Source of the DNA: a virus | Length of the DNA stretch: 20,067 nucleotides | Virus record (IMG/VR): IMGVR_UViG_3300046655_000445 | Span: 1-20,067 of that record | Strand: one strand, 5' to 3' | Part shown: piece after piece, positions 4,682 to 15,028 of the stretch | Numbering within the stretch: position 1 is the first letter of the stretch | Layout of the letters: the number at the start of each line of letters is the position of its first letter | Notes under the pieces: generated by a model | Seen by the model: only the letters and a program-made list of their open reading frames with translations | Database searches by the model: none | What the model was told of the DNA's origin: nothing | Translations under genes and position numbers: made by a program

Positions 4682-4758
4682 TGGCCCGTCTGACAGGAGT
4701 CGAACCTGTAACCTACGGCTTAGAAGGCCGTTGCTCTATCCTATTGAGCTACAGACGG
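4682..4758 (-). tRNA. tRNA-Arg (anticodon TCT)
   Basis: On the - strand the acceptor arms CCGTCTG and CAGACGG pair perfectly, followed by discriminator G and an encoded CCA. The D arm GCTC/GAGC, anticodon stem ACGGC/GCCGT with loop CTTCTAA (anticodon TCT, reads AGA), and T arm ACAGG/CCTGT with TTCGACT are all present. AGA is favoured in AT-rich phage genes, the usual reason for phages to carry this tRNA. Confidence 0.95.
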
Positions 4759-4765
4759 ATAAAAG

Positions 4766-4841
4766 TGGCTCCGCGAGTAGGGCTCGAACCTACGACCAGC
4801 TGATTAACAGTCAGCGGCTCTACCAACTGAGCTATCGCGGA
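4766..4841 (-). tRNA. tRNA-Asn (anticodon GTT)
   Basis: On the - strand the acceptor arms TCCGCGA/TCGCGGA pair perfectly, with discriminator G and encoded CCA. The D arm GCTC/GAGC, anticodon stem GCTGA/TCAGC with loop CTGTTAA (anticodon GTT), and T arm GTAGG/CCTAC are intact. Seven bases separate it from tRNA-Arg, so the two are processed from one transcript. It begins seven bases after the stop of the 50-aa gene. Confidence 0.95.
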
Positions 4842-4847
4842 ATGATT

Positions 4848-5000
4848 CTATACGTCTACTTCATAGACTGCATTAAGGATATATTTGAGACTTTCCATAA
4901 AAAGACTGCCCCTGATGATATGAGGATCTCTTCCCCACTTCTTGCGATAAACATCAATATAAATCTTTTTATAGATTTCAAATTCTTCTTCTCTAGTCAT
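4848..5000 (-). CDS. Small protein, 50 aa, unknown
   Basis: ATG at 4998-5000 overlaps the end of the WYL_2-like gene by eight bases, and stop TAG is at 4848-4850. The product is charged and mostly helical (MTREEEFEIYKKIYIDVYRKK, then a hydrophobic-heptad tail SLFMESLKYILNAVYEV). No family recognised. The tight overlap and the immediate start of tRNA-Asn after its stop support a real gene in the same transcript. Confidence 0.6.
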   Translation of the reverse strand: MTREEEFEIYKKIYIDVYRKKWGRDPHIIRGSLFMESLKYILNAVYEVDV

Positions 5001-5271
5001 TCACTTGTTCCAATGATTTAACAGAATTGATTCTAAACGACTTCCAAGACTCAGACTCCAAGTCCCATACAGACAAAGTTTCTGTTGGTTTTTGTCGTTT
5101 TGCTGATGCTCGACTGACATTAAATTCAGCTCTGGGCATAAACTTTTGAGATAGTGTGCAGAAAAGTTTTCTCTGATCTCCGTTGACTTTGATAAAGTCT
5201 ACCAAAAACTTGCCTCTTTTGAGAGACATTTCGATATTTTCCCTAGTTAGGGACACCGGCAAGTAACTCAT
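4993..5271 (-). CDS. WYL_2/Sm-like SH3-barrel protein (92 aa)
   Basis: The sequence follows the pattern of small phage proteins with an SH3/Sm-like barrel (Pfam WYL_2, formerly DUF2693, from memory): a strand pair with K-V-N-G-D-Q-R-K-L-F-C-T-L, a linker, then TLSVWDLESESWKSFRINSVKSL, where the VWD-x-x-x-x-x-W-K-S-F-R-I pattern is the hallmark. These proteins are common in T4-like phages; the fold is related to nucleic-acid-binding barrels but the function is not known. The start overlaps the end of the kinase gene by 29 bases, so it belongs to the same translational unit as the dioxygenase and kinase genes. Confidence 0.75.
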   Translation of the reverse strand: MSYLPVSLTRENIEMSLKRGKFLVDFIKVNGDQRKLFCTLSQKFMPRAEFNVSRASAKRQKPTETLSVWDLESESWKSFRINSVKSLEQVND

Positions 5272-5788
5272 ATATTACATTCTCCATTTTTTTACTTTCA
5301 ACTTTGGTATTGTTTTCTACAATAGTTATATTTCCCAATAGATTTATATTTTTTCTAATATTATCTATTTGACTTCTTCTTCCTCTTAACCAAACTTCAG
5401 TTTGAGTATCGTTACGAGATATATGTCTTCGTTTCTCTTCTTCCAAATCCACAGTAAGTATATAAACAGAAGATTTATAATTATCTACAACCCATTCGAT
5501 ATCTTCAGATCTGAAAAATCTGTCTCCTTCTACGATTGTATGTCTATATTTTTTACTTGCAAAGTCAATAAATTCTCTGAACTTAGGAATTGCCCCGTAA
5601 GATAATTTATCAGTGCCCCCAAATGTTTCTCCTTCGGGATACTGACCACATACTAGTATATCATCATGTTCCTGACATTTGAATAGTGGCATAGGTTCTA
5701 TAAGTTTATGAGAACCCAAACGAGCAATCAGACCCCTCATAAGAGTTGATTTCCCAGAACATGGTATACCGCCAATCAGAAATATCAT
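5243..5788 (-). CDS. P-loop nucleotide/nucleic-acid kinase (181 aa), possible hydroxymethyl-pyrimidine DNA kinase
   Basis: A Walker A motif GGIPCSGKST opens the protein (residues 6-15). Further features are GQYPEGETFGGTD (around 48-60), a base-type motif IVEGDRFF (85-92) and a basic lid region (KRRHISRND about 119-127 and RGRRSQ about 135-140). The size and layout fit small P-loop kinases. The GTD plus EGDR arrangement recalls the phage kinases that phosphorylate 5-hydroxymethyluracil in DNA during hypermodification, but a dNMP or small-metabolite kinase cannot be excluded. The start follows the dioxygenase stop directly (one base between), and the WYL_2-like gene overlaps its end. Kinase fold is certain; substrate is inference from the neighbour. 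Confidence 0.75.
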   Translation of the reverse strand: MIFLIGGIPCSGKSTLMRGLIARLGSHKLIEPMPLFKCQEHDDILVCGQYPEGETFGGTDKLSYGAIPKFREFIDFASKKYRHTIVEGDRFFRSEDIEWVVDNYKSSVYILTVDLEEEKRRHISRNDTQTEVWLRGRRSQIDNIRKNINLLGNITIVENNTKVESKKMENVIYELLAGVPN

Positions 5789-5789
5789 C

Positions 5790-6794
5790 TTATAAAAAAG
5801 AATCCAAAGTTATTTTACTTTCAACTTTATTAGCATGAACCCCGATTGGTTTTTCTGGTTTTCCAACAGGGCCTTTTGTTGCAACGTGTTCATCGCAATA
5901 TGCAACACAAGATAGCCGAATTCCTTCCCCTGTGATTGGTGTTACGCCATGAAGCTCATTGCTGTCTGCAATTAAAACATCTCCATCGTCTGCTTCAATC
6001 GCGATTCCGTATCTAGGAAAACATAAGTAAGCACCACCAAAATCTCCTATTCTGAAAACACACATTGTCGTTAAACCAAACTCTAAATCTTTGCCGTCTA
6101 AATGGGCAGACATTTTTTCAGTTCCACCACTGGAGTATTTGTTTGCAGAAAGTGCTGTTATTGGTGCTCCGCCAATGTGATATTTTTCTTCTATATAGTT
6201 ATCTGCAAATGTACGCTGTTGGGCCCAAATTTCTGGTGATGCTTTTTTAAGAGCAGACTCGTTGAGGGATGCAATTTTCTGCAGAACTTCCCATTTACCT
6301 TGATTCGATTTCTTTTTCATCCAACCACTTGGCCCGATCATTCCGGTAAATCTACCTCTCTTATAACCAATTAAAACTGAATGAATTGCATTTGCAGATG
6401 CAATACTATTAAACTTACCATTCTTTTTCAGTGGATAATAAGAATTAGGAGTTCTTAACACATAGTCTTTGCCTTCTATTAGACCCTGCCGTTTCATCTC
6501 TTCATGATCGACGGGGCCAGAAGCATTTGCTCTCATCGTCGATACATCATCAATAGAATATAAAGTATCTTTTATATTGTGATAATCTTCCCCTGCATAA
6601 GAATTTTTCACTATACAAGCAAGAATGGGTTTCTCAAATAAAGAAACTGATGGCTTGTATATTCTTATGATGTCTTCTTCTACGCCAATAGAAGATATAA
6701 CTTTATCATAAGATGTTTCGTCCAACCACTTCCCATTCCATTGAGAAAATGTTTCCTTAAATCCCAAATCCTTTTCTGCAGTAAATTCGATCAT
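5790..6794 (-). CDS. TET/JBP-type Fe(II)/2-oxoglutarate dioxygenase (334 aa)
   Basis: The C-terminal half carries the 2OG-dioxygenase core: HxD iron ligands H231 and D233 (SAHLDGKD), the small-residue strand FGGAYLCFPRYGIAIEADDGDVL (about 252-274), distal ligand H282 in ELHGV, and R293 for 2-oxoglutarate in GIRLSCVAYC. The layout H-x-D, about 50 residues, H-G-V-x-P, then R matches the TET/JBP family that oxidises 5-methyl pyrimidines in nucleic acid, including phage members. The N-terminal part contains LRTPNSYYPL and IHSVLIGYKRGRFTG, likely a substrate-recognition extension. Overlaps the 97-aa gene by ATGA and directly precedes the kinase. No methyltransferase is in this window, so the substrate (5mC, T or protein) is open. 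Confidence 0.8.
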   Translation of the reverse strand: MIEFTAEKDLGFKETFSQWNGKWLDETSYDKVISSIGVEEDIIRIYKPSVSLFEKPILACIVKNSYAGEDYHNIKDTLYSIDDVSTMRANASGPVDHEEMKRQGLIEGKDYVLRTPNSYYPLKKNGKFNSIASANAIHSVLIGYKRGRFTGMIGPSGWMKKKSNQGKWEVLQKIASLNESALKKASPEIWAQQRTFADNYIEEKYHIGGAPITALSANKYSSGGTEKMSAHLDGKDLEFGLTTMCVFRIGDFGGAYLCFPRYGIAIEADDGDVLIADSNELHGVTPITGEGIRLSCVAYCDEHVATKGPVGKPEKPIGVHANKVESKITLDSFL

Positions 6795-7084
6795 TCTTCA
6801 GTTCCAGTCTCTACATCCTTCTTAGAAGGTTGCTTCTTAAAGGGACTGCCCCAATAATCTCTGGCATTCACTTTGATATACCGGGCGTCAGTACGAGTTT
6901 TGTCCGGATTAGGGACAGTAAGAACTACATTCTTACCTTTTTTCCATGCATTGAGCTGGTTCATTGCTCGTTGCATTGGATAATTCGGATCGCCTGTCGG
7001 CCGACTTTTCGATGGGCCTGCAGACACCTTAGGGCCCGCAGGAATATTTGAGGTCTTGTTTGACCCACCCTTTCCTTTCGCCAT
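6791..7084 (-). CDS. Small basic protein, 97 aa
   Basis: The N-terminal 40 residues are Gly/Ser/Lys/Pro-rich and probably disordered (AKGKGGSNKTSNIPAGPK). A compact segment follows: AWKKGKNVVLTVPNPD and ARYIKVNARDYWGSPF, with a positively charged face. Similar small proteins with a KGK...V-P-N-P...Y-x-x-V-x-A-x-x-x-W-G pattern occur in marine T4-like phages, from memory; function unknown. A DNA- or RNA-binding role is possible from the charge but not shown. The stop overlaps the dioxygenase start (ATGA), which places it in that operon. Confidence 0.7.
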   Translation of the reverse strand: MAKGKGGSNKTSNIPAGPKVSAGPSKSRPTGDPNYPMQRAMNQLNAWKKGKNVVLTVPNPDKTRTDARYIKVNARDYWGSPFKKQPSKKDVETGTEE

Positions 7085-7087
7085 AAT

Positions 7088-7279
7088 TTAAACTATGCTC
7101 TTATTATAAGTCACTGAAGTTACTTCTGCTTGCTGATCGTACATACGACACTTTGCAATATATGTTGGCCAACGAAAATAATCATTTTCTTCGTTTAACC
7201 AGAACCAAGCAGCATAGTATGGATCAGTTTCATACTTTGCTGTATCTTCGGGGAGCATATGCTCTTCAAAATCTTGCAT
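7088..7279 (-). CDS. Small acidic aromatic-rich protein, 63 aa
   Basis: ATG at 7277-7279 overlaps the upstream TAA (TAATG). The product is acidic and aromatic-rich (DPYYAAWFWLNEENDYFRWPTY), with no cysteine pair or membrane segment. No family recognised. The one-base stop-start overlap and position in the operon make it a credible gene. It ends three bases before the start of the 97-aa gene. Confidence 0.6.
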   Translation of the reverse strand: MQDFEEHMLPEDTAKYETDPYYAAWFWLNEENDYFRWPTYIAKCRMYDQQAEVTSVTYNKSIV

Positions 7280-7527
7280 TATGTTGCTCCTGCTAGGTTT
7301 TTTGCGTAAGTCCTAGCGTCATCTTCCATGAGAAAGAACTTTGCAGTTACTTCTGGCCCGCCTTCTCTAGACCACTCAGATGCAAAGTCAATAAGTTTGA
7401 CCTCATACCCCCAAGTCTTTCTAAAGTTGATTATAGGCCGCATTTTGACCACTAGATTTTTAGAGAAGTTTTTGTAACTCTCTATTTTGTGGTGACGATT
7501 ATTTTTGTGAAAATCTTTCTTCTTCAT
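7279..7527 (-). CDS. Small basic protein, 82 aa
   Basis: ATG at 7525-7527 is preferred over a TTG one codon earlier. The N terminus is very basic with histidines (MKKKDFHKNNRHHKIESYKN). The remainder is a mixed alpha/beta segment (GYEVKLIDFASEWSREGG, then VTAKFFLMEDDARTYAKNL), resembling a small domain in which the last helix packs on a strand. No family recognised. It overlaps the preceding 52-aa gene by 29 bases in another frame, and its TAA stop overlaps the next start. Confidence 0.6.
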   Translation of the reverse strand: MKKKDFHKNNRHHKIESYKNFSKNLVVKMRPIINFRKTWGYEVKLIDFASEWSREGGPEVTAKFFLMEDDARTYAKNLAGAT

Positions 7528-7657
7528 CAATTATCCCATTATGTTTTACATGAACAAAGTCATCGATTAAAGCATTAGTTTGACTGAAACATGACATTAT
7601 AAAGACGAAAATAAGAAATAAGAATGATCCTTTCACGACTCTATTCATCATATTCAT
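7499..7657 (-). CDS. Small secreted or lipoprotein-like peptide, 52 aa
   Basis: The start is ATG 7655-7657 (two further in-frame ATGs follow at 7651 and 7648) with GGGGAG about ten bases upstream. The peptide has a classic signal sequence: basic N terminus (NRVVKG), hydrophobic core SFLFLIFVFIM, then SCFSQTNA. A Cys directly after the core (IMSC) fits a loose lipobox, so it may be a lipoprotein; cleavage after TNA is the alternative. Only about 25 residues remain after processing. Function unknown; it could act at the host envelope, for example in superinfection exclusion, but nothing in the sequence proves that. Confidence 0.6.
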   Translation of the reverse strand: MNMMNRVVKGSFLFLIFVFIMSCFSQTNALIDDFVHVKHNGIIDEEERFSQK

Positions 7658-7664
7658 CAGACTA

Positions 7665-8087
7665 CTACTCCCCTACTGCTTCCGGTAGAAGGTCTGGATG
7701 GACTTCTCTGACTAATCTCTCAGTCAGACCGGAAACTTTTATCTTGCGAGTGATAATCTTACAGAGGATTTCGGCCTCTTTAGGATTAAGACTCTCAAGA
7801 ATCTGAATAAGAATGATTCTCATCCTATCTTCGGATACATTACTGTCCGTATAGAACAGTCTAAGATCTTTCATTGTCTTCTCTAGGTAACTATCTTCTA
7901 GTCCTAGTGGTGCCTTGGATGGGCGATATTCTGGAATTTTTTTGATAGCGAACTTGATATTCCTATCGAACATATGTTGTAAAACACTCAAGAATCCAGT
8001 CCTTTTATGGACGGATAGAATATCTTTCTTTTGATTAATAGAACGTGTAGACTCTATTTCCTCAAAAATTTCAGATACTAACTTCAT
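7665..8087 (-). CDS. Conserved T4-like phage protein next to RNase H (140 aa; DUF6433-like)
   Basis: I choose ATG 8087 (MKLVSEIFEEIES), since AGAGG lies eight bases upstream; an upstream in-frame ATG at 8117 lacks a ribosome site and would deepen the overlap with RNase H to 47 bases. The pattern of an N-terminal helix pair, a middle segment with a FLSVLQHMFDRNIKF-like block, and a C-terminal LESLNPKEAEILCKII...GLTERLVREVHPDLLP is the one I recall as DUF6433, regularly found beside RNase H in marine T4-like phages. The function is not established. Co-expression with RNase H suggests a role in replication or late regulation, in the region where T4 carries genes 33 and 59; that parallel is only positional. 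Confidence 0.75.
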   Translation of the reverse strand: MKLVSEIFEEIESTRSINQKKDILSVHKRTGFLSVLQHMFDRNIKFAIKKIPEYRPSKAPLGLEDSYLEKTMKDLRLFYTDSNVSEDRMRIILIQILESLNPKEAEILCKIITRKIKVSGLTERLVREVHPDLLPEAVGE

Positions 8088-8949
8088 AATTTGCCTCTTT
8101 AAACTCAGACAATTCATCCATAAGAAGAATCATCTTGTTTTTAATAAAATAATCAAAAACTTTTTTCATGTCACCAGTCGGAAGCTTCTGATACTCTTGG
8201 AGAATTTGATTCTCTATTTCTTCGGGAACGAATGTTAGATCGACCAGTTGCTGATTTCTCTTATAGTTCTTCAGCATATTTGAATCACAGAAATCCTCTG
8301 GATCTCTATCAATATCCAACCAATCTACCATCTTATTTTTGGATAGGGCCTTCTGTCTCTTGCCCGTCACAAATACATCACCTGGCGATAAGAAGTTAGG
8401 AATACCATCTCCCCTATCTCCCCTAATAATGTGTTCTCTTATATATTTATAAGGATCTGAAGTTGAGATAAATTTCTTCAGAATAGGACTATACTGTGCA
8501 ACTCCTTCGTATCTTTGCAGTTGCTTAAAGTCTTTATCGCTAGAGATAATCAATATCTTTTCTCTTGAAGAGAAATGTCTTGTAAGAACACCAATTATAT
8601 CATCTGCCTCTGCGTGTTCTACTTCAAGTATCTTGTAGGGAAAAACTTCTCGTAAATCTTTCTTCACTTCTGTAATGGTGTTAAAGATAAGATTCCAATC
8701 GTATCCAGAAGACTCCCGCAGTTTCTTGCGGCTTGCTTTATACTGCGGGAACACTTCTTTGCGCCAAAAATCTCTATTATCACAACACAGAACGATGTTG
8801 CCATAATCTCCAGAAAATCTCTTCTTAACACTCAAAATGCTGTTAAGAATCATATGGCGAACTAAATTTTCGTCCACAGTTTCTTGGTAAGAGTTTATTT
8901 GTGTCATCAAGTTTGATATTACAACCTGATTCAAATCGACCAAAATCAT
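8071..8949 (-). CDS. rnh: T4-type RNase H (5'-3' exonuclease family, 292 aa)
   Basis: Removes RNA primers from lagging-strand fragments in T4 replication. The FEN1/5'-nuclease acidic motifs are in place: D5 in ILVDLNQ, D57 in LCCDNRDFWR, the E-A-D-D cluster in EHAEADDIIG (about 111-120), and D138 and D140 in IISSDKDFKQL. VRHMILNSI and QYKASRKK also match the T4 enzyme, which is slightly longer (305 aa). The gene starts just downstream of a near-consensus promoter (8978-9006). Its last 17 bases overlap the next gene, so the two are coupled. Confidence 0.93.
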   Translation of the reverse strand: MILVDLNQVVISNLMTQINSYQETVDENLVRHMILNSILSVKKRFSGDYGNIVLCCDNRDFWRKEVFPQYKASRKKLRESSGYDWNLIFNTITEVKKDLREVFPYKILEVEHAEADDIIGVLTRHFSSREKILIISSDKDFKQLQRYEGVAQYSPILKKFISTSDPYKYIREHIIRGDRGDGIPNFLSPGDVFVTGKRQKALSKNKMVDWLDIDRDPEDFCDSNMLKNYKRNQQLVDLTFVPEEIENQILQEYQKLPTGDMKKVFDYFIKNKMILLMDELSEFKEANYEVSI

Positions 8950-8977
8950 TTAAAAATCCATTTTTATAATGTAGCAC

Positions 8978-9006
8978 AGTATACAGAGTTATTCTGCATT
9001 TGTCAA
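8978..9006 (-). promoter_or_regulatory. Sigma70-type promoter TTGACA-17-TATACT before RNase H
   Basis: On the - strand, TTGACA (9001-9006), a 17-base spacer and TATACT (8978-8983), about 29 bases upstream of ATG 8949. The TGA stop codon of the upstream 95-aa gene (9003-9005) is inside the -35 box. Only one base departs from consensus in the two hexamers. Expected early promoter for the RNase H, dioxygenase and tRNA block. Confidence 0.88.
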
Positions 9007-9290
9007 GAGACTTTTCCTATGATGTCTCCAACGGATACCCGATTGAACTTTGTCTCGTTTCTATTTGTATATTGATTAAAATCATGAGACTTGACAGTTC
9101 CTTTGAATTGAAAACAGACATCAACATCCAATTGTTCATTATTATCAGCAAAGAATGATCCGTATCTTCCTGTCTTAGTCACAACACTATAGACAGTACT
9201 CTCGCCATAATGAGTATTGACATCTTTCTTTTCAATAACTTTTGCGAACCAAAGGGCTCGTTCTCCGACCTTTCCAATGAATTCACTCAT
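9003..9290 (-). CDS. Small OB-fold-like protein, 95 aa
   Basis: The sequence ERALWFAKVIEKKDVNTHYG, a G-R-Y-G-S-F-F strand, then FQFKGTVKSHDFNQYTNRNETKFNRVSV resembles small OB-fold modules in phage proteins, whose last strands read G-T-V-K-x-H-x-x-Y-x-x-x-x-Q-T-x-x-x-R-V. Such modules usually bind single-stranded nucleic acid, so that is a reasonable guess but not proven. The start overlaps the end of the 184-aa gene by eight bases. Its TGA stop is part of the -35 box of the next promoter. Confidence 0.65.
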   Translation of the reverse strand: MSEFIGKVGERALWFAKVIEKKDVNTHYGESTVYSVVTKTGRYGSFFADNNEQLDVDVCFQFKGTVKSHDFNQYTNRNETKFNRVSVGDIIGKVS

Positions 9291-9837
9291 ACTTAAACCA
9301 CTCCGGTACTTCTCTGTTAGTCCATTTCATGTTGAATCTTTTCTGCTTTGTCATGTAGAATTTCTGATATGACTTAACCGGATCTTCTGGGAACATACAT
9401 TCTGGATTTGACTTCATTGCCAACTTAAATTGTGTCATTCTGGTGCGAGGGATGTTCGCTGGCATCCGTTCTAGTGCATCCCGTAGTTTTGTGTCAGTCG
9501 CATGAACCTTGCCGTAACGGTGCGTGTATTCCTCGCAGAGAGCAGAAAAATGTTTCCAGTGCCACCTGTAGTTGATGAAAGATTCGCCAGTCCATACTGT
9601 ACATGGATGTTTATGATGAACAGCCTTGTAGAGAGTTAACTCCCTATTATCTGGAAGCATATAATACTTCACCTGTCGTTTTCCGGACACTGATGGTTTC
9701 AACATCTCTACGCCATCTAGTATACGATGTACTGTTGAGAGCATCTGAGCCGACTCAACGACCATCTTTGGAATGTGTTTATCGCACTGTTGTTGTGCCG
9801 CCTCTACTGGATCTCGACTCAATACAAATACATTCAT
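9283..9837 (-). CDS. Conserved phage protein with CDKH motif, 184 aa
   Basis: The N terminus NVFVLSRDPVEAAQQQCDKH followed by KMVVESAQMLSTVHRIL is a conserved signature I recall from many phage genomes, where the protein is usually hypothetical and occasionally labelled a DNA-repair enzyme. I do not accept a specific activity from the sequence alone. A further conserved block is KAVHHKHPCTVWTGESFINYRWHWKHF, with several His, Trp and Cys that could build a metal or nucleic-acid site. The C terminus ends in PVKSYQKFYMTKQKRFNMKWTNR-type basic sequence. The start overlaps the preceding stop (ATGA). An internal promoter in the upstream gene (9952-9980) could drive it separately. Confidence 0.75.
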   Translation of the reverse strand: MNVFVLSRDPVEAAQQQCDKHIPKMVVESAQMLSTVHRILDGVEMLKPSVSGKRQVKYYMLPDNRELTLYKAVHHKHPCTVWTGESFINYRWHWKHFSALCEEYTHRYGKVHATDTKLRDALERMPANIPRTRMTQFKLAMKSNPECMFPEDPVKSYQKFYMTKQKRFNMKWTNREVPEWFKYE

Positions 9838-10133
9838 TTCCCCATCCTTGATATTTCTTCTGCGTATTTTGCACTTGTTACGGGAACTGCATTAGACTTA
9901 TGCATAGTAGCAATACCTACAATGGAATCGCCCGTATATTTTGGTTTATCTATCATATCACAAGTAGTCGAACTTGTCAACTCCTTAGAAGGGTAAACAG
10001 TTTCTTGGCAAAGGATATTAGTTTTAGCTACCAGTGGACGAAATTCTGGTTGATATTTTTTGGTGGATTTGCGAGACTTTTTCCGTTTTCTGCCAGATGG
10101 ATCGTGTCTCATACTGCCGTAAATTATTTGCAT
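9834..10133 (-). CDS. Small basic protein, 99 aa
   Basis: I place the start at ATG 10133 (MQIIYGSMRHDPSG), with GAG seven bases upstream; the longer TTG start at 10145 would leave only about nine bases of leader after the promoter. The N-terminal third is strongly basic (SGRKRKKSRKSTKKY), the rest polar with no clear domain (QEFRPLV-like, then STTCDMIDKPKYTGDSIVGI). Short proteins with the same basic patch and a late K-P-x-Y-T-G-x-x-x-x-G-I-A-x-M-H-K-S-N motif are familiar from marine T4-like phages; function unknown. The stop overlaps the 184-aa start. Confidence 0.7.
   Translation of the reverse strand: MQIIYGSMRHDPSGRKRKKSRKSTKKYQPEFRPLVAKTNILCQETVYPSKELTSSTTCDMIDKPKYTGDSIVGIATMHKSNAVPVTSAKYAEEISRMGK
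9952..9980 (-). promoter_or_regulatory. Internal sigma70-type promoter TTGACA-17-TATGAT
   Basis: On the - strand inside the 99-aa gene: TTGACA (9975-9980), a 17-base spacer and TATGAT (9952-9957). Both hexamers are strong, but the position within coding sequence lowers certainty. It would give a second transcript for the 184-aa and 95-aa genes with a leader of roughly 108 bases. Confidence 0.55.
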
Positions 10134-10160
10134 AAATTTACTCAATTAAAAGATAAGACC

Positions 10161-10189
10161 ATTCTATAGAATAATCTAGTCTTTGTCAA
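10161..10189 (-). promoter_or_regulatory. Sigma70-type promoter TTGACA-17-TAGAAT with palindromic -10
   Basis: On the - strand, TTGACA (10184-10189), a 17-base spacer and TAGAAT (10161-10166). The -10 is half of the perfect 12-bp palindrome ATTCTATAGAAT (10161-10172), a possible operator. The promoter overlaps the last codons of the resolvase gene and starts transcription near 10154, before the 99-aa gene. Confidence 0.85.
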
Positions 10190-10745
10190 GTAAATTTATA
10201 CCATATTTGCAAATATAATAGGAATCTATGATATCCGATATAGGATTTCCTATTTTTGTAGATTTAGATTCCAGATATTGTTTTAAATCAATATTCGTAG
10301 AAGAAATAAAGCTTTCATACATCAATTCTTTATTTGCGTTTCCTTTGCCGGAAGCAAACTTTTTAATCTCTGCAGGGGAAACTAGATGATAGTCTATCTC
10401 AGAATTCCATAGTTTCCACTTCAGTAGACCACAGTTTTCTGCGATGTGAAATATTTTCCCTGTAGAATTATAACTATAATCTTCTATATAGACAGACTCT
10501 ATCTCATTTGTTAACACGATGTCTAACGCCCAATCAGATATAAAATCATATCTCTCTTCGGGATATTCGTAAGTAAATATTGTTGATTGGCCATCTATAT
10601 TCTTGAAAGAATACTCTGAGTACTTTTTGGTGGGCGAAAGAAAGTATACGTCACACGCTTCGAACACGAAATCTTTCGGGTCTCCTGAGTATGTACATAC
10701 AGACGGCGATGTTAGACTGTAATCAATTCCTGCTAGTCTTGCCAT
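10176..10745 (-). CDS. RuvC-like Holliday-junction resolvase (189 aa)
   Basis: The RNase-H-fold resolvase pattern is complete: first strand ARLAGIDYSLTSPSV with D8, second acidic strand SVYIEDYS with E88, and a C-terminal helix NPISDIIDSYYIC with D171 and D174, matching the D-E-D-D catalytic set of RuvC (D7, E66, D138, D141). The region GKGNANKELMYESF before the last motif is also RuvC-like. T4 resolves branched DNA with endonuclease VII (gp49); a RuvC-type enzyme is the likely replacement here, acting on recombination intermediates before packaging. Overlaps the zinc-ribbon gene by 13 bases and follows the RNR genes in the primase-led operon. Confidence 0.8.
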   Translation of the reverse strand: MARLAGIDYSLTSPSVCTYSGDPKDFVFEACDVYFLSPTKKYSEYSFKNIDGQSTIFTYEYPEERYDFISDWALDIVLTNEIESVYIEDYSYNSTGKIFHIAENCGLLKWKLWNSEIDYHLVSPAEIKKFASGKGNANKELMYESFISSTNIDLKQYLESKSTKIGNPISDIIDSYYICKYGINLLDKD

Positions 10746-10915
10746 AAATCCTCAGATTCTTCATACTGATCATCTTCCTCTGCGCTATACCCCTCTTCTA
10801 AATTTTCTCCACAATTTGGACAATAATTTATTCTGTCGTCATCATTTCTCAGATATATTTCAAAATAACAAGAGCAATACCTACATTCGACAATCAACAT
10901 AGAATCTTCGTTCAT
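10733..10915 (-). CDS. Small zinc-ribbon protein, 60 aa
   Basis: Two cysteine pairs form a zinc ribbon: CRYC (residues 11-14, with C16 adjacent) and CPNC (32-35) followed by G, as in C-P-N-C-G knuckles. The C-terminal third is highly acidic (EEGYSAEEDDQYEESED). ATG 10915 is preceded by AGGAA at a good distance. Phage zinc-ribbon proteins of this size often bind nucleic acid or a transcription complex, but the acidic tail could suggest a protein partner. The end overlaps the resolvase start. Confidence 0.75.
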   Translation of the reverse strand: MNEDSMLIVECRYCSCYFEIYLRNDDDRINYCPNCGENLEEGYSAEEDDQYEESEDLWQD

Positions 10916-10924
10916 AATAATTTC

Positions 10925-12163
10925 CTATGTGTAGGCGTCATCCCAACTTCCAACCAACCCTGCAACTTCATATTCCGTAACTCTATTTTCGAAGAAGTTA
11001 GTGTGGTCTGCGCCATTAAGAATCCATTCCAACCAAGGAAGAGGATTCGTTTTTACCTTAAATACAGGTTTTAGCCCCAGTTGAAGTAGTCTTCTATCAG
11101 TTATATATCTAATATAAACCTTTACCTCATCTGATGACAATCCATCAATATCTCCAATTTTATAAGCCAAGTCAATAAACTTATCTTCTAACTTAACTGC
11201 AGTCTTGGACATTTCATAAATTTCTTTCTTAAAGGAATCATCCACAATTCTTGGATGTTCTGAACAGTATGCTCTGAAAAGGTTTGCATTTCCTTCAACG
11301 TGCATAGATTCGTCTCTGATAGACCACTCTACGACCTTACCCATTCCTTTCATCTTTCCATATCTCTGGAAGTTGAGCAACATTACGAATGATGCGAATA
11401 GTGCGACACCTTCATTGAATACAGATTTTGCAAAGGCGAGTCCCAAACCTCTTACAGTAGAAGGATCAGAGTCTGTCATAAACTCTACCTTATCAGTCAT
11501 TTCCTGATACTCCAAGAATGCGTGATACTCACTATCAGGCAATCCAAGAGTCTCATTCAACAATGCATAGGCCCTTTGATGGATACCCTCTCTTGCAGCG
11601 AATGACCCCAACATATTACGAACTTCATTGTTCTTAATTCTGGGAATGAATTGATCATAGTAGTTCTTACCAACTTCTACATCTGATTGAGTGAATAATC
11701 GAAGGATATTTGTGATATATTCCTTTTCTGTAGGAGAAACTTTATCGGTTTTCCAATCCATTACATCTTCGGATAGATCAACCTCATCCTCAATCCAATG
11801 AACTTTCTCATGTTTTGTGGTTAGTTCTACTGCCCAAGGATAGAAGAATGGCTTGTAAGTCTGTGATACTTTTGTCAGTCCACCAGATACTTTCTTCAGT
11901 ATCTTATCTGCACTGACCATTAGATCGTCATACCCACCGATGTGCTTGTCATCGACAAATATCTGGGGCATAGAGTTAACTCTTCTAGGAAACGAACCTG
12001 TGCCTAGGACTTCTTTTGAACCATTTATTCTTTGATAAAACGAGAGACGTTGTTCCTCATCATCAAGAACAACCTCTGTATATTTGATATCAAAATCATC
12101 AAACCAATCTTTTGCTTTCACACAAAACGGACACCCCGTTTTTGAATAGATAGATACATCCAT
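10925..12163 (-). CDS. nrdB: Glutaredoxin-class I ribonucleotide reductase beta subunit fusion (412 aa)
   Basis: Residues 1-90 are a glutaredoxin: active site CPFC at 11-14, cis-Pro in SMPQIFVDDKHIGGYDDL. The remainder is a class I R2 protein. The six iron ligands fit D129 (EVDL), E192 and H195 (REGIHQR), E251 (NEGVALF), E285 and H288 (RDESMH). Y199, seven residues after E192, matches the radical tyrosine of classical R2 (E. coli Y122). The C terminus SWDDAYT would dock on NrdA. Together with NrdA it makes dNDPs; the fused glutaredoxin can supply electrons to NrdA's C-terminal cysteines. The start follows the nrdA stop by nine bases, with AGGAG at the ribosome site inside and after that stop codon. 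Confidence 0.95.
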   Translation of the reverse strand: MDVSIYSKTGCPFCVKAKDWFDDFDIKYTEVVLDDEEQRLSFYQRINGSKEVLGTGSFPRRVNSMPQIFVDDKHIGGYDDLMVSADKILKKVSGGLTKVSQTYKPFFYPWAVELTTKHEKVHWIEDEVDLSEDVMDWKTDKVSPTEKEYITNILRLFTQSDVEVGKNYYDQFIPRIKNNEVRNMLGSFAAREGIHQRAYALLNETLGLPDSEYHAFLEYQEMTDKVEFMTDSDPSTVRGLGLAFAKSVFNEGVALFASFVMLLNFQRYGKMKGMGKVVEWSIRDESMHVEGNANLFRAYCSEHPRIVDDSFKKEIYEMSKTAVKLEDKFIDLAYKIGDIDGLSSDEVKVYIRYITDRRLLQLGLKPVFKVKTNPLPWLEWILNGADHTNFFENRVTEYEVAGLVGSWDDAYT

Positions 12164-12172
12164 ATTTTTCTC

Positions 12173-13930
12173 CTAACCTTGACAAGCTTCACATTCGTCC
12201 TGACTTTCGTCGGTTGGAGTTTCGTAATCCTTTAGTGCTACTCTAGTAACCTTCTGTGCAACATTCTCTGCTCTACTTGAACTCTCAGTTCTTAAGTAGT
12301 AAAGTCCTTTACATCCACTTTCCCAAGCTCTATAATGGACTTTGTGTATATAAGATTTATCTGCAGATGGTGGAAAGAATATATTCAGTGATTGTCCCTG
12401 ACAGAGATACTTCTGTCGGTCTGCTGCTTGTTCTATCAATGCCATCTGGTCAATTTCTATCGCAGTCTTAAATACCTCTTTCAGATGTTCATCCAAGAAT
12501 GCTAGGTGTTGTACAGAACCACCATTAGTGATTATCGAACTCCATACTTCGTCAGTACTTTTATCGATTTTTTCCAATTCTTCCTCTAAGTATCTGTTCC
12601 TAACCAAATGAGAACCAACTCTGGTTCTATGGGTGTAGGCATTTGCCTTCAGAGGTTCAATTGAGGGAGAAGTATTCACAATGATTGAACTATTCGCATT
12701 GGGTGCAATAGCCAATAAATGTGAGTTACGAAGTCCAGAACCTTCCATGTCCGGACACTCCCCTCTTTCTTCCGCGAGTAACTTAGATTCCTCTGAAGCC
12801 TGATCTTTAATGAACTTAAATATCTCATTGTTCATTTCTCTTGCTTCTTCGGAATCGAAAGAGACTCTATGTTTATGGAAATAGGAATGCAATCCCATTG
12901 CACCTAGTCCCAAAGACCTCTCCATCTGTGCAGAGTATCTTGCCTTTGATATCTCATCTCCAGCATGGTCTATAAAATATTGTAATACATTATCCAAGAA
13001 TCTAATCAAATCTCGGACGATATTAGATTCTTTCCATTCGTCATACTTTTCGATATTTAGTGATGACAAGCAGCAAACAGCGGTTCTATCTTCGCTTGTG
13101 GGCAAATGAATTTCGTTACATAAGTTAGACCCATGTATCTTTAATCCTTTCTTCTTCATTTCTTTTGGAAGAAACCGATTAGCAGTATCTATAAAGTTTA
13201 AATATGGTTCTCCTGTTCTATATCGGGTTTCTAAAATAGTTTCCCACAACTTTCTAGCTCGGATTGTATCTTTCGCAGTCTTCTCATTCGGGTCAATTAA
13301 ATCCCATGTTAAATTTTCTTTAACTGCTTCCATGAATTTGTCGGTAATATTGACTGCGTGGTGTAGATTAAGATTCTTTCTATTCACATCACCAGTCGGA
13401 GTACGCATTCCTACGAACTCTAGGATGTCTGGATGGTCTATATCAAGATATGCTGCATAAGACCCTTTCCTAGTTTTGCCCTGCCTGTACGCCGTCATAT
13501 CCGCATCTACGGTGTGCATGAAAGGGATAGGGCCGGGTGCTTTATCAGATACTGATCGGACAGTGCTCCAATGACCACCGACACCACCACCCTTTACTGA
13601 CAACCATCTCAATTCAGACGAATGCGAAATAAGACCTTCTAGTGTGTCTGGGACATATGAAAGGAAACAAGAAATCGGCAGGGACTTTGGTTGTTTTCCT
13701 TGTTTCGGTGCGTTAGATAATACTGGAGAAGAGAACATAAACCATCCCTTCGACGCACCTTCATATATTCTCTGAGCAAGTTTTTTGTCTCCGCAAGAGT
13801 ACGCTATTGCGGCTCTTGCGAATGAATTTTGGGGGGATTTCTCACCTTCTATACAATAATAATCCTTCAATAATTTATAAGATTGTTCTGATAAATTCTC
13901 ATCTCGTTCATAGTCTACTTTCAATTTCAT
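12173..13930 (-). CDS. nrdA: Class I ribonucleotide reductase alpha subunit without ATP-cone (585 aa)
   Basis: Catalytic motifs are all found: C88 in PISCFLS and C286 in AVCCLSSLN (redox pair), N269-C271-E273 in GSNLCNEI (N437, C439 thiyl and E441 of E. coli), Y544 and Y545 in GLYYLRT (radical transfer tyrosines) and a C-terminal C580/C583 pair (CEAC). At 585 residues it is much shorter than E. coli NrdA (761 aa). The N terminus starts almost directly with the ten-stranded barrel region, so the regulatory ATP-cone is missing and dATP shut-off is not expected. The ATG has GAGG ten bases upstream. It sits between primase and nrdB in one operon. Confidence 0.95.
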   Translation of the reverse strand: MKLKVDYERDENLSEQSYKLLKDYYCIEGEKSPQNSFARAAIAYSCGDKKLAQRIYEGASKGWFMFSSPVLSNAPKQGKQPKSLPISCFLSYVPDTLEGLISHSSELRWLSVKGGGVGGHWSTVRSVSDKAPGPIPFMHTVDADMTAYRQGKTRKGSYAAYLDIDHPDILEFVGMRTPTGDVNRKNLNLHHAVNITDKFMEAVKENLTWDLIDPNEKTAKDTIRARKLWETILETRYRTGEPYLNFIDTANRFLPKEMKKKGLKIHGSNLCNEIHLPTSEDRTAVCCLSSLNIEKYDEWKESNIVRDLIRFLDNVLQYFIDHAGDEISKARYSAQMERSLGLGAMGLHSYFHKHRVSFDSEEAREMNNEIFKFIKDQASEESKLLAEERGECPDMEGSGLRNSHLLAIAPNANSSIIVNTSPSIEPLKANAYTHRTRVGSHLVRNRYLEEELEKIDKSTDEVWSSIITNGGSVQHLAFLDEHLKEVFKTAIEIDQMALIEQAADRQKYLCQGQSLNIFFPPSADKSYIHKVHYRAWESGCKGLYYLRTESSSRAENVAQKVTRVALKDYETPTDESQDECEACQG

Positions 13931-13942
13931 TATTAAACACCC

Positions 13943-15028
13943 TCAACACCGTTTCCATGCGGAAATTTTTAATTTCGCTTCTAATCCATTTGTTCTGTTG
14001 TTACTTATAATGTCTCGCAATTCTAAAACATCCATTCCAGACACTATAACATCATTTATATCTTTTTCTTCCACCCTGTTTGGCCATATAAAAATACTAA
14101 ATCCAGACTCTACAAAATTCGACATTCTCTTCACAATTTGTGGATTTCTTGGTTCGTTATCAAATACAAACACCACATCTGCAAATTTATCGAAGTACTT
14201 TAGACTGACATCACTCCCTGCCATTGCGATTGCATTATCAAGGAACAGAGAGTCGATTGGGCCCTCTGTCACATATACAGTTTTACTCTTATCTACTCTC
14301 TCCAAACCATAGATCTTTTCTGCGTCTTCATCTATCTTGATGGTAATATATCGCATACCGGAAGAGTCTAATGCTCTACCCTGTAATGCGATAAGTTTCT
14401 TGTTTTCATTGAAGAAGGGAATTACAATCCGTTTCTCATTATCTACAAGTTTATCGTACAATCTAGAATTGTCACCGAACTTAGAAAGTACTGTATTGAC
14501 TGTTGACTTAAAGTCTTCAGTGTAATATAATACATCCAAGTTAGGAATTTTTCTGTTCACCAAGTATCGTTTGGCTGGGTGTGAATCATCCAACTTTTTA
14601 ATTGGAGTCATACCCTTTAGTTTGTCTTTGAACTTTGCCTTAAAATCTATATTGAACTCAGTCTGTTCTTCTTTTACGAGAACTGAATTGTCCCTAAAAT
14701 CGTAATAGAACTTTAAAGGTTTATGTTCTTCTTTCTTTTGTTCTTTCTTTGGGTTGTTGTCTTTCCACTTCTCAAAGGTATATTGTTTATGGATTTCGCC
14801 ATCGAAAATACTCAAGAACTTACCAAGAGACATAGATGCACCACAATTATGGCACATATAAAAGAACTTGCTCTTCTTCTCAAAGAAGAACCCTCGAGCC
14901 TTGTAGGAGTGTTTCTGAGAGTCACCACATAAAGGACACCTACAATTGTATAGGTTGTCTCGTTTCTTTGCGAATCTCTCTAACTTACTCCCTACAAGAT
15001 TTATGTAGGTGTGATCAATATATAACAT
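13943..15028 (-). CDS. DNA primase, T4 gp61-type (361 aa)
   Basis: Makes RNA primers on the lagging strand together with the gp41-type helicase. The N-terminal zinc finger has CPLC (31-34, with C29 nearby) and CHNC (59-62). The TOPRIM-like catalytic part carries VTEGPIDSLF (E255), VFVFDNEP (D290 and E292) and IWPNRVEEKDINDVI (D323, D326). Length is close to T4 gp61 (342 aa). Start ATG 15028 is followed by LYIDHTYINLVGSKLERF, a typical gp61 N terminus in marine phages. It is the first gene after a strong sigma70-type promoter (15053-15081) and heads the nrdA-nrdB-resolvase operon. Confidence 0.92.
   Translation of the reverse strand: MLYIDHTYINLVGSKLERFAKKRDNLYNCRCPLCGDSQKHSYKARGFFFEKKSKFFYMCHNCGASMSLGKFLSIFDGEIHKQYTFEKWKDNNPKKEQKKEEHKPLKFYYDFRDNSVLVKEEQTEFNIDFKAKFKDKLKGMTPIKKLDDSHPAKRYLVNRKIPNLDVLYYTEDFKSTVNTVLSKFGDNSRLYDKLVDNEKRIVIPFFNENKKLIALQGRALDSSGMRYITIKIDEDAEKIYGLERVDKSKTVYVTEGPIDSLFLDNAIAMAGSDVSLKYFDKFADVVFVFDNEPRNPQIVKRMSNFVESGFSIFIWPNRVEEKDINDVIVSGMDVLELRDIISNNRTNGLEAKLKISAWKRC

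What the first reader, a model, noticed from the sequence alone, without database searches (positions are those of the whole stretch)
4993..7084. TET/JBP dioxygenase, P-loop kinase and Sm-like protein in one overlapping operon: candidate DNA hypermodification module
The 334-aa protein has the H231/D233/H282/R293 set and spacing of TET/JBP oxygenases, known in phages to hydroxylate 5-methyl pyrimidines. The next gene, one base away, is a P-loop kinase with GTD and EGDR features reminiscent of kinases that phosphorylate hydroxymethyl-pyrimidines in phage DNA. A WYL_2/Sm-like barrel overlaps the kinase, and a basic 97-aa protein overlaps the oxygenase start. Together they could oxidise a methyl base, activate it by phosphorylation and direct the complex to DNA. 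TET plus kinase in a T4-like marine phage without an adjacent methyltransferase or transferase would be a little-described combination.
Basis: partly seen in the sequence, partly recalled or inferred. Interest (0 to 1): 0.8.

Follow-up and report, generated by a model that had tools for sequence, protein, structure and literature searches.

The report
Phage TET oxygenase–DNA-kinase gene pair
A marine T4-like phage has picked up a matched pair of genes, a TET-type DNA oxygenase and a kinase distantly related to known DNA-base kinases, that probably oxidise and then phosphorylate methylated cytosines in its own DNA, a modification step that has not been shown in any organism as far as I could check.

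Summary
The genes are real and mostly correctly read. The 334-aa protein is a genuine TET/JBP dioxygenase: it passes Pfam PF12851, has invariant H231/D233/H282/R293, and its 26 best PDB fold matches are all TET-type DNA oxygenases. The 181-aa protein is a P-loop kinase (PF18751). By profile-profile comparison and by fold its nearest characterised relatives are phage 5-hmdU DNA kinases, not dNMP kinases. The WYL_2/Sm-like and 97-aa genes are not part of the module. In five sister phages they abut with no TET or kinase, so the pair is a scarless ~1.54-kb insertion between them. In 42 of 49 testable loci the same kinase follows C5-methyltransferase–TET. In one lineage a TET-associated glycosyltransferase takes its place. 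The window is the only TET of 53 testable without a methyltransferase overlapping its start. However, sister genomes carry a C5-methyltransferase elsewhere (96–100% identical among them). Best reading: methyltransferase makes 5mC, TET makes 5hmC, the kinase phosphorylates 5hmC in DNA. Substrate and final product are untested. A published 5-hmdU DNA kinase does not phosphorylate 5hmC, so a 5hmC DNA kinase would be a new activity. New variant of a known kind.

The parts
5790..6794 (-). TET/JBP 2OG-Fe(II) dioxygenase, 334 aa; Fe ligands H231, D233, H282; 2OG-binding R293
   Evidence: PF12851 E 9e-12, over cut-off; invariant residues; best PDB profile hit TET2 E 5e-7; AF2 model pLDDT 80.9 whose top 26 PDB matches are TET2, CMD1, CcTet, NgTET1
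5243..5788 (-). P-loop kinase, 181 aa, remote relative of phage 5-hmdU DNA kinases; proposed 5hmC DNA kinase
   Evidence: PF18751 over cut-off; phrog_800 shared with M6 gp54; hhalign to the 5-HMUDK family Prob 95, E 3e-8 over 123 columns, versus P-loop-only matches for Tmk, Adk, T4 gp1; AF2 pLDDT 85.6, BFVD matches include phiW-14 and SP10 5-hmdU DNA kinases
5255..6793 (-). Inserted two-gene cassette (TET+kinase), about 1.54 kb, absent at this site in sister phages L081-L085
   Evidence: DNA alignment of the junctions; gene order in sisters
6791..7084 (-). 97-aa basic protein, phrog_23239: flanking backbone gene, not part of the cassette
   Evidence: 85-87% identical and directly followed by WYL_2 in L081-L085
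4993..5271 (-). WYL_2/Sm-like protein, 92 aa: flanking backbone gene, not part of the cassette
   Evidence: PF10902 E 5e-10; 82-90% identical in sisters lacking TET/kinase

Best explanation
The TET and the kinase form a two-gene DNA-modification cassette. It came from Melnitz-like marine myophages, where the order is C5-methyltransferase–TET–(variable gene)–kinase, and was inserted without its methyltransferase between two operon genes of a ~200-kb T4-like phage. The proposed steps are: (1) a phage C5-methyltransferase, encoded elsewhere, makes 5mC in phage DNA; (2) TET oxidises it to 5hmC; (3) the kinase phosphorylates the 5-hydroxymethyl group in DNA, giving a bulky negatively charged 5-phosphomethylcytosine. 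That base is either the final anti-restriction mark or an intermediate for an enzyme outside the window. Shown here: family membership of both proteins, the fold relationship of the kinase, the insertion, the neighbourhood association, purifying selection, and the methyltransferase in sisters. Inferred: substrates, order of steps, product and protective role.
For: TET identity. Kinase is the 5-HMUDK type rather than the dNMP type: shared VGxY...GxD...EG motif, hhalign with three controls, Foldseek TM 0.68-0.79 to phage kinases including the named 5-hmdU DNA kinases of phiW-14 and SP10, versus 0.4-0.6 to PDB dNMP kinases. Association: of 49 distinct kinase loci with 3 kb upstream, 42 have MTase+TET, 1 TET only (window), 3 MTase only, 3 neither; an MTase overlaps the TET in 52 of 53 testable loci. 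In about 20 loci TET and kinase abut with nothing between. In L045-L048 the kinase position after TET is taken by an epimerase and a TET-associated glycosyltransferase, PF20691 E 4e-11: one hmC-capping enzyme swapped for another. Insertion. The window kinase nests among kinases directly adjacent to TET (support 0.98). Sister MTase: whole G001 and contigs from the same samples as the other sisters, 96-100% identical. Phosphorylation of 5hmdU in phage SP8 DNA by itself blocks many restriction enzymes (PMC7653180).
Against: The window record is 20 kb, so the MTase is inferred from sisters. That MTase is only 35-38% identical to the TET-linked ones, so its target may not suit this TET. The kinase fails Pfam's own 5-hmdU kinase model PF18748, and no HMUDK_hel partner was found. 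Six of 49 kinase loci lack TET, so the kinase may have a TET-independent role. A published 5-HMUDK does not phosphorylate 5hmC DNA (PMC6457204). Cr30 has TET and kinase but no recognisable C5-MTase, and has ADDT and a thymidylate-synthase-family protein, which fits a 5hmU route there.
Confidence: 0.6

Rival explanations
1. The TET oxidises thymine (as JBP does) to 5hmU, and the kinase phosphorylates 5hmU, exactly as 5-hmdU DNA kinases do; no methyltransferase is needed, which is why the pair could move alone.
For: The kinase's nearest characterised relatives act on 5hmU; the one commercial 5-HMUDK is specific for hmU and ignores hmC (PMC6457204); Cr30 has TET, kinase and ADDT without a C5-MTase; no MTase adjoins the window TET.
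Against: In every other testable member of this TET clade (52 loci) a C5-MTase overlaps the TET start. The 5-hmdU kinases use a thymidylate-synthase-type hydroxymethylase; PF00303 is absent from Melnitz, G001, G003, G004, G005. ADDT is absent from all handles but Cr30.
Confidence: 0.15
2. The kinase is a nucleotide-pool or other small-substrate kinase that only travels with TET.
For: P-loop kinase fold, PDB matches include thymidylate, adenylate, guanylate and nicotinamide riboside kinases; six kinase loci have no TET within 3 kb upstream.
Against: Profile and fold searches put 5-hmdU DNA kinases ahead of dNMP kinases; tight gene order with MTase and TET, and replacement by a DNA glycosyltransferase.
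Confidence: 0.12
3. The phosphate is only an activated intermediate; an unrecognised transferase elsewhere in the genome (perhaps a variable gene such as Melnitz gp7, or an ATP-grasp ligase) adds the final group.
For: In M6, ViI and phiW-14 the phosphorylated base is an intermediate (PMC6449724); Cr30 pairs TET and kinase with ADDT; most relatives have a 330-430-aa gene of unknown function between TET and kinase.
Against: About 20 relatives have nothing between TET and kinase; no ADDT or TAGT in the complete Melnitz genome or in the 129-146-kb records G003-G005.
Confidence: 0.1
4. The TET is a counter-defence eraser that oxidises 5mC to strip or disguise methylation, and the kinase is a neighbour without a joint function.
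For: The TET stands without an adjacent methyltransferase in the window.
Against: Relatives encode methyltransferase and TET in one overlapping operon, so the methyl group is placed by the phage itself; the pair moved together.
Confidence: 0.03

Closest known systems
Phage TET / C5-methyltransferase cytosine hypermodification clusters (Burke et al. 2021 PNAS, doi 10.1073/pnas.2026742118; not held in the library, from memory and as cited in PMC11347163)
   Same: A phage TET/JBP dioxygenase whose family members overlap a C5-methyltransferase gene; predicted to hydroxylate 5mC in phage DNA; tailoring gene next door.
   Different: In the window the TET has no methyltransferase beside it, and the tailoring gene is a kinase rather than a glycosyltransferase.
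5-hmdU DNA kinase (5-HMUDK; M6 gp54, phiW-14 C9DG08, SP10 F8WQ30; Lee et al. 2018, as described in PMC6449724 and PMC7653180)
   Same: P-loop kinase of similar size, shared motif VGxY...GxD...EG, full-domain profile match and predicted fold.
   Different: Separate Pfam family (PF18751 versus PF18748), no helical HMUDK_hel partner, linked to TET and C5-MTase instead of a dUMP hydroxymethylase; a 5-HMUDK does not act on hmC (PMC6457204).
Methylophilales phage Melnitz gp5-gp8 (MZ577097; PMC9004378)
   Same: MTase gp5, TET gp6 (53% identical), gp7, kinase gp8 (54%) in one operon.
   Different: Melnitz keeps the methyltransferase and an unknown gene between TET and kinase. A term search of its paper found only the methylase discussed; 'dioxygenase' and 'kinase' do not occur.
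Caulobacter phage Cr30 TET-kinase-ADDT-TAGT region
   Same: TET (PF12851), related kinase (phrog_800 E 5e-24) in one 10-kb region.
   Different: Cr30 also has ADDT and a TAGT-like protein, no PF00145 methyltransferase, and a PF00303 protein.

Membership tests
TET/JBP dioxygenase (PF12851) | HxD...H Fe(II) triad and 2OG-binding Arg | tested here: met
   H231, D233, H282, R293 invariant in 7 diverse and 19 close TETs
TET/JBP dioxygenase (PF12851) | Scores over the curated cut-off and nearer to TETs than to protein or RNA hydroxylases | tested here: met
   45 bits versus 34.9; PDB fold ranks 1-26 all TET, CMD1, CcTet, NgTET (E 3e-12 to 2e-8), then FTO 8e-7, PHD2 1e-5
TET/JBP dioxygenase (PF12851) | Oxidises 5-methylpyrimidine in DNA | not testable with these tools
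   needs an enzyme assay
5-hmdU DNA kinase (PF18748 / 5-HMUDK) | Homologous kinase domain over its length, beyond the P-loop | tested here: met
   hhalign 123 columns, Prob 95, E 3e-8; controls align 22-29 columns at 3-17%
5-hmdU DNA kinase (PF18748 / 5-HMUDK) | Match to the curated 5-hmdU DNA kinase model | tested here: not met
   The window kinase matches PF18751, not PF18748; M6 gp54 matches PF18748 at 8e-18
5-hmdU DNA kinase (PF18748 / 5-HMUDK) | Helical domain or partner HMUDK_hel (PF18723) | tested here: not met
   No match in the ten records searched; the control search also rang nowhere, though M6 gp55 next to the kinase does match; the window has no neighbour of that kind
5-hmdU DNA kinase (PF18748 / 5-HMUDK) | Phosphorylates 5hmU in DNA | not testable with these tools
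   needs an enzyme assay
Phage MTase-TET cytosine hypermodification cluster | C5-methyltransferase adjacent to TET | tested here: not met
   None in the window; 52 of 53 testable relatives have it
Phage MTase-TET cytosine hypermodification cluster | C5-methyltransferase somewhere in the same genome | tested here: inconclusive
   Window record is only 20 kb; 96-100% identical copies in the sister clade
Thymine hypermodification pathway (hydroxymethylase-kinase-ADDT) | Thymidylate-synthase-type hydroxymethylase and ADDT in the genome | tested here: not met
   PF00303 and PF18724 absent from sister G001 (200,733 b) and from Melnitz; not testable for the window's own genome

The most novel reading that the evidence does not exclude
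This kinase family is the first DNA kinase for 5-hydroxymethylcytosine, and the window's phage and its many relatives carry 5-phosphomethylcytosine as a finished base in their virion DNA, made by a methyltransferase–TET–kinase relay in which the kinase can be exchanged for a glycosyltransferase.
Probability: 0.3. Interest if true: 0.8.

Novelty: new variant of a known kind. Interest (0 to 1): 0.58.

Why it matters
TET-based base modification in phages is known, and so is a kinase for 5hmU in DNA. A kinase acting on TET-made 5hmC is not described in the library I could search, and a known 5-HMUDK refuses hmC (PMC6457204). If right, it adds a new DNA base, a new enzyme for labelling 5hmC, and a protection strategy used by an abundant group of marine myophages (dozens of loci found here). 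An isolate is available: phage Melnitz. The window also shows that TET and kinase can move between phage lineages as a unit while the methyltransferase stays behind, which makes the dependence of TET on a particular methyltransferase directly testable.

Tried and rejected
Pairwise BLAST of the window or Cr30 kinase against M6 gp54 gave nothing; only profiles and folds show the relationship. phrog_800 on its own is weak evidence, since it rings in all 14 control genomes as a general P-loop profile, so hhalign controls and fold searches were added. Treating the WYL_2 and 97-aa genes as module parts was rejected on sister gene order. A chimeric contig was considered and rejected: both junctions fit into overlapping reading frames, and both flanks match the same sister lineage at 82-90%. 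The variable genes between TET and kinase looked ParB/Srx-like by motif, but Pfam and profile comparisons did not support this: best 32% probability to a ParB-like protein, and most families are unrelated to each other. They are not homologous to HMUDK_hel. An alignment-based TET scan failed because the alignment was too diverse. The Melnitz row was not accepted for structure prediction, so only window and IMG/VR sequences were used. Burke 2021, Iyer 2013 and Lee 2018 are not held, so statements about them beyond citing papers are from memory.

Full report
The observation. The window is a 20,067-base IMG/VR virus record. They sit in an operon of a T4-like phage with RNase H, NrdA, NrdB and primase genes. 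The RNase H (292 aa) is nearest to Methylophilales phage Melnitz among isolates (50%), followed by cyanophages; the primase is nearest to cyanophages.

The oxygenase. Pfam PF12851 is matched over its cut-off. H231, D233, H282 and R293 are invariant in an alignment with six diverse phage TETs and in 19 closer relatives. A profile search of the PDB returns TET2 first (E 5e-7) and the fungal TET 8jkk. The AlphaFold model (pLDDT 80.9) finds 26 TET-type DNA dioxygenase chains before FTO, ALKBH1 and PHD2.

The kinase. It passes PF18751 and shares phrog_800 with M6 gp54, a 5-hmdU DNA kinase by PF18748. Because phrog_800 also rings in all control genomes, I made profile-profile comparisons. The 28-member kinase family (A3) against eight 5-HMUDK-family proteins (A4) gives probability 95%, E 3e-8 over 123 columns, and M6 gp54 alone 94%. 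E. coli Tmk, Adk and T4 gp1 align only at the P-loop, 22-29 columns, 3-17%. A shared VGxY...GxD...EG pattern lies outside the P-loop. The AlphaFold model (pLDDT 85.6) matches viral models at TM 0.68-0.79, including Bordetella phage CN1's protein (its gene is an 81% relative of M6 gp54) and the named 5-hmdU DNA kinases of phiW-14 and SP10. PDB dNMP kinases reach only about 0.4-0.6. But PF18748 itself is not matched and no HMUDK_hel partner was found, so I do not file it as a 5-hmdU kinase; it probably works like one on another base.

The neighbourhood elsewhere. A search of viral contigs gave 61 loci with TET 74-83% identical. Almost all read C5-methyltransferase, TET overlapping it by about 16 bases, a variable slot of 0-1.5 kb, then the kinase. 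A kinase-led search added divergent loci. Counting distinct kinase loci with at least 3 kb upstream, 42 of 49 have methyltransferase and TET, one (the window) has TET only, three have methyltransferase only, and three have neither. Of 53 TET loci where it could be judged, only the window lacks the methyltransferase. In L045-L048 no kinase follows TET; instead there is a nucleotide-sugar epimerase and a TET-associated glycosyltransferase (PF20691 E 4e-11). The exchange of a kinase for a glycosyltransferase behind methyltransferase and TET is the best contextual argument that the kinase acts on the TET product.

The insertion. Sister phages of the window, including a 200,733-base record (G001), share its backbone genes at mostly 80-100% identity but have the 97-aa gene directly followed by WYL_2, with neither TET nor kinase. 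DNA alignment places a scarless insertion of about 1.54 kb exactly between those two genes. The Sm-like and 97-aa proteins are therefore flanks, not partners. In trees the window TET nests within the methyltransferase-linked clade, and the window kinase within the clade whose members directly abut TET (support 0.98), so the source operon probably was methyltransferase–TET–kinase. Codon-position divergence (TET against L008 0.14, 0.09, 0.47; kinase against L056 0.19, 0.12, 0.37) shows purifying selection on both genes.

The missing methyltransferase. G001 encodes one C5-methyltransferase far from this operon, and no TET, ADDT, TAGT or PF00303 protein. Contigs carrying a copy 96-97% identical come from the same metagenome samples as the other sisters (L251, L252, L253 and L305 with L083, L084, L081 and L085), and none of 80 such loci has TET or kinase. 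The window's phage therefore probably has it too, but this is inference. It is 35-38% identical to the TET-linked enzymes, so its target may differ.

Mechanism. The most likely relay is methyltransferase (5mC), TET (5hmC), kinase (5-phosphomethylcytosine in DNA). Phosphorylating 5hmdU alone already blocks many restriction enzymes in SP8 DNA (PMC7653180), so the phosphate could be the end product. In M6, ViI and phiW-14 the phosphate is an intermediate (PMC6449724), and Cr30 combines TET, kinase and ADDT, so a further transferase is possible. About 20 relatives have TET and kinase with nothing between, and complete Melnitz lacks ADDT and TAGT, which leans towards phosphate as the end product there. 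The main doubt is the base. The one characterised relative tested on hmC refuses it (PMC6457204), and Cr30 lacks a C5-methyltransferase, so a thymine route remains a real rival.

Novelty. Phage TET with C5-methyltransferase is known (Burke 2021, not held; cited in PMC11347163), and base kinases in phage DNA are known for hmU. No held paper uses a term for a 5hmC DNA kinase or its product, and the Melnitz paper mentions only the methylase. I rate it a new variant of a known kind, with a plausible new enzyme activity.

Noticed in passing
L008-L080 between TET and kinase; Melnitz gp7 (L002:6269-7552): A hypervariable gene slot (189-425 aa, several mutually unrelated families) sits between TET and kinase; several members show a ParB/Srx-like GxNR/GxHR motif that profile searches did not confirm.
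   Followed up: partly
L208, L213, L221, L222, L223; L220, L229, L231: The same kinase follows a variable gene with no TET nearby, in L220/L229/L231 with a methyltransferase but no TET. What it phosphorylates there is unexplained.
   Followed up: partly
L050:11533-12105, L182:6534-7109: A second, divergent P-loop kinase-like gene directly follows the kinase in some relatives.
   Followed up: no
L047:10999-12511 (also L045, L046, L048): Methyltransferase-TET followed by an epimerase and a TET-associated glycosyltransferase in place of the kinase.
   Followed up: yes
L003 (Cr30) 5789-14682: Cr30 has TET, kinase, ADDT and a TAGT-like protein but no PF00145 methyltransferase, and a PF00303 protein; its DNA would be worth base analysis.
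   Followed up: partly
L167:11490-12038 (G001 151489-152037): A 182-aa protein of unknown function directly follows the lone methyltransferase of the sister phage; by eye it looks nuclease-like.
   Followed up: no
L002:82-1131 and L222, L223, L229 upstream of the kinase: RimK-like ATP-grasp proteins lie near the modification genes of Melnitz (annotated) and, by eye, next to kinase loci of relatives; an amino-acid ligase could be a tailoring enzyme.
   Followed up: no
window 4682-4841: tRNA-Arg(TCT) and tRNA-Asn(GTT) genes on the minus strand just downstream of the operon.
   Followed up: no
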